Source: Fuerstiella marisgermanici
Lineage (GTDB): Bacteria > Planctomycetota > Planctomycetia > Planctomycetales > Planctomycetaceae
DNA length: 64,000 nt
Direction: 5' to 3'
NCBI RefSeq assembly: GCF_001983935.1
Contig: NZ_CP017641.1
Span: 3,906,001 to 3,970,000 of the forward strand
Of this stretch, positions 60,582 through 60,670 are shown piece after piece; the first letter of the stretch is position 1, and the number at the start of each line of letters is the position of its first letter. A program made the position numbers and the translations under genes. The notes under the pieces were generated by a model, which worked only from the letters and a program-made list of their open reading frames with translations, was not told where the DNA came from and did not search any database.

Positions 60582-60670
60582 AAAAAAAACTGCTGAAGAA
60601 ATCACCGGCATGGGGAATGGGATTCGAACCCAATGGTTGCCAGAAGTATCCCGTGCCTGCACCATTCAGC
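60582..60670 (-). ncRNA. Y RNA-like element 3, T-arm-only head
   Basis: Closing helix GCTGA/TCAGC, followed by CAG and a T8 tract (60582-60589), so it may be its own terminator. Module strands ATGGTGCAG and ATTTCT are as in the other elements; the inner helix is ACGGG/CCCAT. The head is a single tRNA-type T-arm (GGG-TTCGAAT-CCC core) without D-arm or acceptor 5' strand. It lies 27 bp before the Ro60 start codon. Confidence 0.8.

What the first reader, a model, noticed from the sequence alone, without database searches (positions are those of the whole stretch)
60582..60670. Reduced T-arm-only Y RNA head
Element 3 keeps the module but its head is a lone T-arm (TTCGAAT loop). With the D/T-arm heads of elements 1-2 and the plain hairpin of element 4, it looks like a graded series, as if the head were a replaceable adaptor targeting different enzymes that read tRNA elbows or T-arms (for example pseudouridine synthases or nucleases).
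Basis: inference. Interest (0 to 1): 0.72.

Follow-up and report, generated by a model that had tools for sequence, protein, structure and literature searches.

The report
Y RNA headed by lone T-arm
Next to the gene for a bacterial Ro60-like protein (Rsr) sits a real small RNA whose Rsr-binding part is kept but whose usual tRNA-like top is cut down to a single tRNA T-arm; related bacteria carry rows of such RNAs with different tops, including one that copies ribosomal RNA, which fits the idea that the top is a swappable docking piece.

Summary
Element 3 (E3, minus strand, 60670-60592 plus a U-run to 60582) shares the Y-RNA module of its neighbours: a profile trained without it scores E3 40.0 bits against 17.4 for the next place in the window. 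Its head is one T-arm (TTGGG-TTCGAAT-CCCAT, 4 of 5 pairs) with no acceptor-like stem and no D-arm. E1 and E2 carry T-arm, acceptor-like stem and D-arm. E4 is a plain hairpin. An Rsr (TROVE) gene lies between E3 and E4.

E3 is not a recent oddity. MAG KLAP164 keeps E1, E3 and E4 in order; the T-arm core is 14/15 identical at about 51% neutral identity, though the contig breaks after that T-arm. The nearest unbroken orthologue (65% Rsr) has no T-arm-only RNA. Across planctomycete rsr loci, T-arm heads without a D-arm occur in 21 of 25 genera, usually with an acceptor-like hairpin, and the T-stem covaries. E3 is the extreme form. The arrays also hold a circularly permuted 23S-rRNA head (26 loci), which supports the "replaceable head" reading.

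That different heads recruit different enzymes remains untested. Verdict: new variant of bacterial Y RNA.

The parts
60582..60670 (-). Element 3 (the finding): Y-like RNA, outer stem GCTGAA/TTCAGC, U8 tail
   Evidence: sequence; profile score 40.0 bits without training on it
60617..60633 (-). T-arm head of E3, TTGGG-TTCGAAT-CCCAT (4 of 5 stem pairs, canonical T-loop)
   Evidence: core 14/15 kept in KLAP164
60643..60663 (-). E3 5' module motif GGTGCAGGCACGGGATACTTC
60595..60607 (-). E3 3' module motif CGGTGATTTCTTC
60835..60979 (-). Element 1: full YrlA-type Y RNA (T-arm, acceptor-like stem, D-arm) with U-run
   Evidence: Rfam YrlA 38.8 bits, tRNA 29.2 bits; fold z -3.58
60691..60828 (-). Element 2: full YrlA-type Y RNA
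   Evidence: Rfam YrlA 25.5 bits; profile
58526..58603 (-). Element 4: plain-hairpin Y RNA downstream of rsr (YrlB-like)
   Evidence: Rfam YrlB 22.6 bits, E 0.31; profile 53.3 bits; conserved in KLAP164
58651..60576 (-). rsr, Ro60/Rsr orthologue, 641 aa as listed; the start is more likely the second ATG at 60555 (MTKFG)
   Evidence: PF05731 TROVE E 4e-16
60986..61795 (-). 269-aa gene of unknown family that ends 7 nt before E1; kept just upstream of E1 in KLAP164

Best explanation
E3 is an Rsr-associated bacterial Y RNA. Its basal double stem with the conserved bulge motifs (GGTGCAG ... TACTTC ... GATTTC) is the Rsr-binding module, and its head has been reduced to a lone tRNA T-arm. In planctomycete rsr loci the head is an exchangeable docking piece. 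E3's head shows only the tRNA feature that T-loop readers need (established minimal substrate of TruB, and of TrmA), while lacking what D-loop readers (DusA) and acceptor readers need. Most likely it lets the Rsr particle hold, or be modified by, a T-arm-reading partner. Shown here: shared module, lone T-arm, kept between two species, head diversity across genera. Inferred: Rsr binding, and partner recruitment through the T-arm.
For: Module membership 40.0 bits against 17.4 for the next place. Position directly upstream of rsr. T-arm core 14/15 kept in KLAP164 at 0.51 identity of fourfold sites, P 6e-4. D-arm-less T-arm heads: 36 of 117 module-matched elements, 21 of 25 genera. T-stem and outer stem covary: 9 of 13 pairs change on both sides, 0 of 500 shuffles reach this. 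In the window's own genus, T-arm + 5-bp hairpin without D-arm, between rsr and rtcB. Other head types, including a permuted 23S mimic with compensatory H69-like stem changes. Full YrlA is a substrate of TruB and DusA (review PMC8394870). A TruB gene is present.
Against: The nearest unbroken orthologue (L105, 65% Rsr) has two full heads and a plain hairpin but no T-arm-only RNA. The KLAP164 contig breaks just after the E3 T-arm, so the 3' half of that head is unseen. Only one other acceptor-less T-arm head was noted (L086). E3's own fold is not unusually stable. No expression or binding data exist.
Confidence: 0.55

Rival explanations
1. Decay: E3 is a full or acceptor-bearing head that lost its acceptor-like hairpin and D-arm; the T-arm is a relic without a partner.
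For: The nearest unbroken orthologue lacks a T-arm-only RNA; the T-stem has 4 of 5 pairs; fold z -0.77; acceptor-less heads are rare.
Against: T-arm core kept 14/15 where neutral identity is 0.51; intact module; D-arm-less T-arm heads are common and covary elsewhere.
Confidence: 0.22
2. Cis role: as the element nearest rsr, ending in a U8 run 27 nt before the likely start codon, E3 works mainly as an rsr leader (terminator, processing site or Rsr autoregulation), and its head matters little.
For: Position and U-run. D-arm-less T-arm heads tend to be nearest rsr: 12 of 19 genera against 7.6 expected, P about 0.03.
Against: The T-arm is kept, which a terminator would not need; the consensus terminator scan did not call it. 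The position bias is modest and the regex classes are approximate.
Confidence: 0.13
3. Cap: the T-arm only stabilises the RNA end or blocks exonucleases and may be modified by TruB in passing; it recruits nothing.
For: The T-loop is a compact stable fold; YrlA is a TruB substrate (PMC8394870).
Against: Plain hairpins (E4 and many others) do the same job without a T-loop; heads that copy other RNAs, such as 23S, are hard to explain as mere caps.
Confidence: 0.1

Closest known systems
YrlA (Rfam RF02553), bacterial Y RNA with tRNA-like domain (Chen 2014, Wang 2018, as cited in PMC8394870)
   Same: Next to rsr; basal stem module plus a head with a tRNA T-arm; E1 and E2 of the same array fit it in outline.
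   Different: E3 lacks the D-arm and the acceptor-like stem, and has no Rfam YrlA match even at E 5.
YrlB (Rfam RF02565)
   Same: Short Rsr-linked Y RNA; E4 resembles it (22.6 bits, below the gathering score).
   Different: YrlB has no T-arm; E3 does.
T-arm + acceptor-like hairpin Y RNAs of planctomycetes (found here; not in Rfam)
   Same: Rsr-linked, T-arm without D-arm, often nearest rsr.
   Different: They keep an acceptor-like hairpin; E3 does not. Their module sequence differs and their Rsr belongs to another clade (about 22% identity to the window's).

Membership tests
Rsr-associated bacterial Y RNA | encoded next to a Ro60/Rsr (TROVE) gene | tested here: met
   PF05731 at 58651-60576, E 4e-16
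Rsr-associated bacterial Y RNA | shared basal-stem module with the other Y RNAs of the locus | tested here: met
   40.0 bits with a profile not trained on E3; next place 17.4
Rsr-associated bacterial Y RNA | binds Rsr | not testable with these tools
   needs pull-down or gel shift
YrlA (RF02553) | match to the Rfam covariance model | tested here: not met
   no match at E3 up to E 5
YrlA (RF02553) | tRNA-like head with T-arm, acceptor-like stem and D-arm | tested here: not met
   T-arm only
YrlB (RF02565) | match to the Rfam covariance model | tested here: not met
   the YrlB match is at E4, not E3
tRNA or tRNA gene relic | tRNA model or ARAGORN match | tested here: not met
   none at E3

The most novel reading that the evidence does not exclude
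Planctomycete rsr loci encode a set of Rsr adaptors in which one clamp module is fitted with interchangeable RNA mimics: permuted tRNA, T-arm + acceptor, lone T-arm (E3), cloverleaf joined through its acceptor end, and a circularly permuted 23S H69-H71 mimic. Each would bring a different RNA-processing or modifying enzyme, or RNA class, to Rsr.
Probability: 0.4. Interest if true: 0.88.

Novelty: new variant of a known kind. Interest (0 to 1): 0.62.

Why it matters
What the head of a Y RNA does is an open question for Ro60 particles in bacteria and animals. A natural series in one locus (full tRNA mimic, T-arm only, plain) and a wider set of heads in relatives separate the parts of the tRNA mimic that nature keeps, so T-arm, D-arm and acceptor readers can be tested one by one. 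The T-arm-only E3 is the minimal case.

Tried and rejected
tRNA gene or relic at E3: no match. YrlA or YrlB membership of E3: no Rfam match. Pfam TROVE as a probe for relatives: it misses most planctomycete Rsr (3 of 392 genomes), so a 5-sequence profile was used instead (110 of 397). Searching KLAP164 for the missing half of rsr and E3: not in the assembly. Further window-clade orthologues in f1 (170 genomes), f3 (95) and the phylum (392): only G649 (65-67%) and G121 (35%). The jumbo IMG/VR contig L150 has a 56% Rsr but no detectable Y RNA beside it. Further elements with the window's module elsewhere in G000: the four other pattern hits lie outside the rsr locus; the two whose sequence was read look like chance matches. 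A first acceptor-stem finder was too permissive and was replaced; the second still has a 12% background rate and called E3 'A-', which reading the sequence does not bear out. Looking for the 23S mimic in G000: inconclusive, because not even the rRNA gene was found, so that stretch is probably withheld. The original YrlA papers are not in the library.

Full report
What is there. On the minus strand of the window, around an rsr gene (TROVE, PF05731), lie four short RNAs in the order E1, E2, E3, rsr, E4. All four share GGTGCAG, then 7 nt, then (T/A)TACTTC on the 5' side, and a GATTTC-like motif on the 3' side, set in an outer and an inner stem, mostly followed by a T-run. A profile from E1, E2, E4, two elements of KLAP164 and three of G649, without E3, scores E3 40.0 bits; the best unrelated place in 64 kb on both strands scores 17.4. 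E3 is therefore a member of the set. Its head is one T-arm, TTGGG-TTCGAAT-CCCAT. The 3' strand of the inner stem follows at once, so no acceptor-like stem or D-arm can form. E1 and E2 carry T-arm, acceptor-like stem and D-arm in the circularly permuted order of YrlA; E4 is a plain hairpin.

Close relatives. A MAG, KLAP164 (88% Rsr identity over 220 residues), holds the same upstream gene, E1, E3 and E4 in order, without E2. Its contig jumps from just after the E3 T-arm into rsr codon 420, and the missing part is nowhere in the assembly, so the 3' half of its E3 head is unknown. E3' aligns better to E3 than to E1 or E2. The T-arm core is 14/15 identical while fourfold sites of rsr are 51% identical (P 6e-4), which suggests selection on the T-arm. 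In G649 (65% Rsr) the order is full head, full head with a Gln-like D-arm, plain hairpin, rsr: same module, no T-arm-only RNA. The window clade of Rsr is rare and patchy.

Wider comparison. A profile of five Rsr found the protein in 110 of 397 genomes of the class; 80 loci were fetched. Most belong to other Rsr clades (about 20-25% identical to the window's) with a related module, GACTGCCGxxxxGGAGTACAT ... CTTCGTCG. Of 117 module-matched elements with a T-arm, 79 have a D-arm, 36 do not, and 2 are of the cloverleaf type; D-arm-less ones occur in 21 of 25 genera. Nearly all of the D-arm-less ones have an acceptor-like hairpin after the T-arm, and in the short ones (about 117-123 nt) the inner stem follows directly, so there is no room for a D-arm. 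On 17 of these, outer stem and T-stem pair in 94% of cells, and 9 of 13 pairs change on both sides; no shuffle reaches this. The D-arm-less element is the one nearest rsr in 12 of 19 genera against 7.6 expected (P about 0.03; genera are not independent and the classes rest on patterns). In the window's own genus, G004 has rsr, full YrlA, plain hairpin, T-arm + 5-bp GAAA hairpin, full YrlA, rtcB (rtcB recognised by reading its translation, not by a family search). L086 has one further T-arm without acceptor. So a T-arm without a D-arm is an ordinary head type in this group, and E3 is its most reduced form.

Other heads. The same module also carries a head that copies 23S rRNA. In 26 loci the 5' part reads (A)TGACGGTCCTAAGGTAGCGA or a close variant, mostly followed by an H71-like hairpin, and in many loci the 3' part reads GGACGGCCGTAA. 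One example matches E. coli 23S over 32 nt at 97% (E 2e-4; a median of 7 places per genome). The order is circularly permuted, so the module sits where the H69 loop would be. The H69-like stem shows compensation: ACGGTC/GGCCGT becomes AGGAGC/GCTCCT in four loci, and ACGGTC/GACCGT or ACGGCC/GGCCGT in others; in about half of the heads the best-scoring partner found by the script is a different or imperfect one. This parallels YrlA, where the tRNA is opened at the anticodon. A further type joins a cloverleaf through its acceptor end (L013, L061, L055 and others). The open-access search found no description of these; subscription papers were not searched.

Mechanism. Established (PMC7790460, PMC8394870): Rsr and Y RNA tether PNPase in Deinococcus, and YrlA is a substrate of TruB and DusA. 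From general knowledge, a T-arm hairpin alone suffices for TruB and TrmA, while DusA reads the D-loop. E3 keeps the T-loop letters needed (U54, U55, C56, A58, 53-61 pair). The best reading is a clamp for Rsr with a docking head for T-arm readers. Shown: module, head, conservation, diversity of heads. Not shown: expression, Rsr binding, partner.

Verdict. Observation confirmed; interpretation partly supported; new variant of a known kind.

Noticed in passing
L013, L045, L048, L057, L061, L071, L076, L087, L111 and others (26 loci): Rsr-linked Y RNAs with a circularly permuted 23S rRNA H69-H71-like head; the H69-like stem shows compensatory changes. Possibly more surprising than the finding itself.
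   Followed up: partly
L013, L055, L058, L061, L064, L072, L087: Y RNA heads that look like a small cloverleaf in natural order (D-like hairpin CCAGTGAGTCTGG, anticodon-like hairpin, T-arm) joined to the module through the acceptor end.
   Followed up: partly
L012 4740-4605, minus strand: Apparent un-permuted YrlA: tRNA order with the Y module in place of the anticodon arm, next to rsr on a phage-like contig.
   Followed up: no
L121 3480-2280, minus strand: In the window's own genus: rsr of another clade, four Y RNAs with different heads, then rtcB.
   Followed up: partly
L150 2989-4914: A 436-kb IMG/VR contig encodes an Rsr 56% identical to the window's, with no Y RNA detected beside it.
   Followed up: partly
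window 14990-15079: Rfam tRNA match (36.2 bits) that ARAGORN does not call; it reads like the 3' half of a tRNA (anticodon arm, T-arm), perhaps an attachment-site remnant of a mobile island.
   Followed up: no
L003 2185: KLAP164 contig joins the E3 T-arm directly to rsr codon 420: a deletion or a misassembly.
   Followed up: partly
L045, L056, L087, L111: rsr/Y RNA arrays lie next to apparent arrays of tRNA genes (T-arm series).
   Followed up: no
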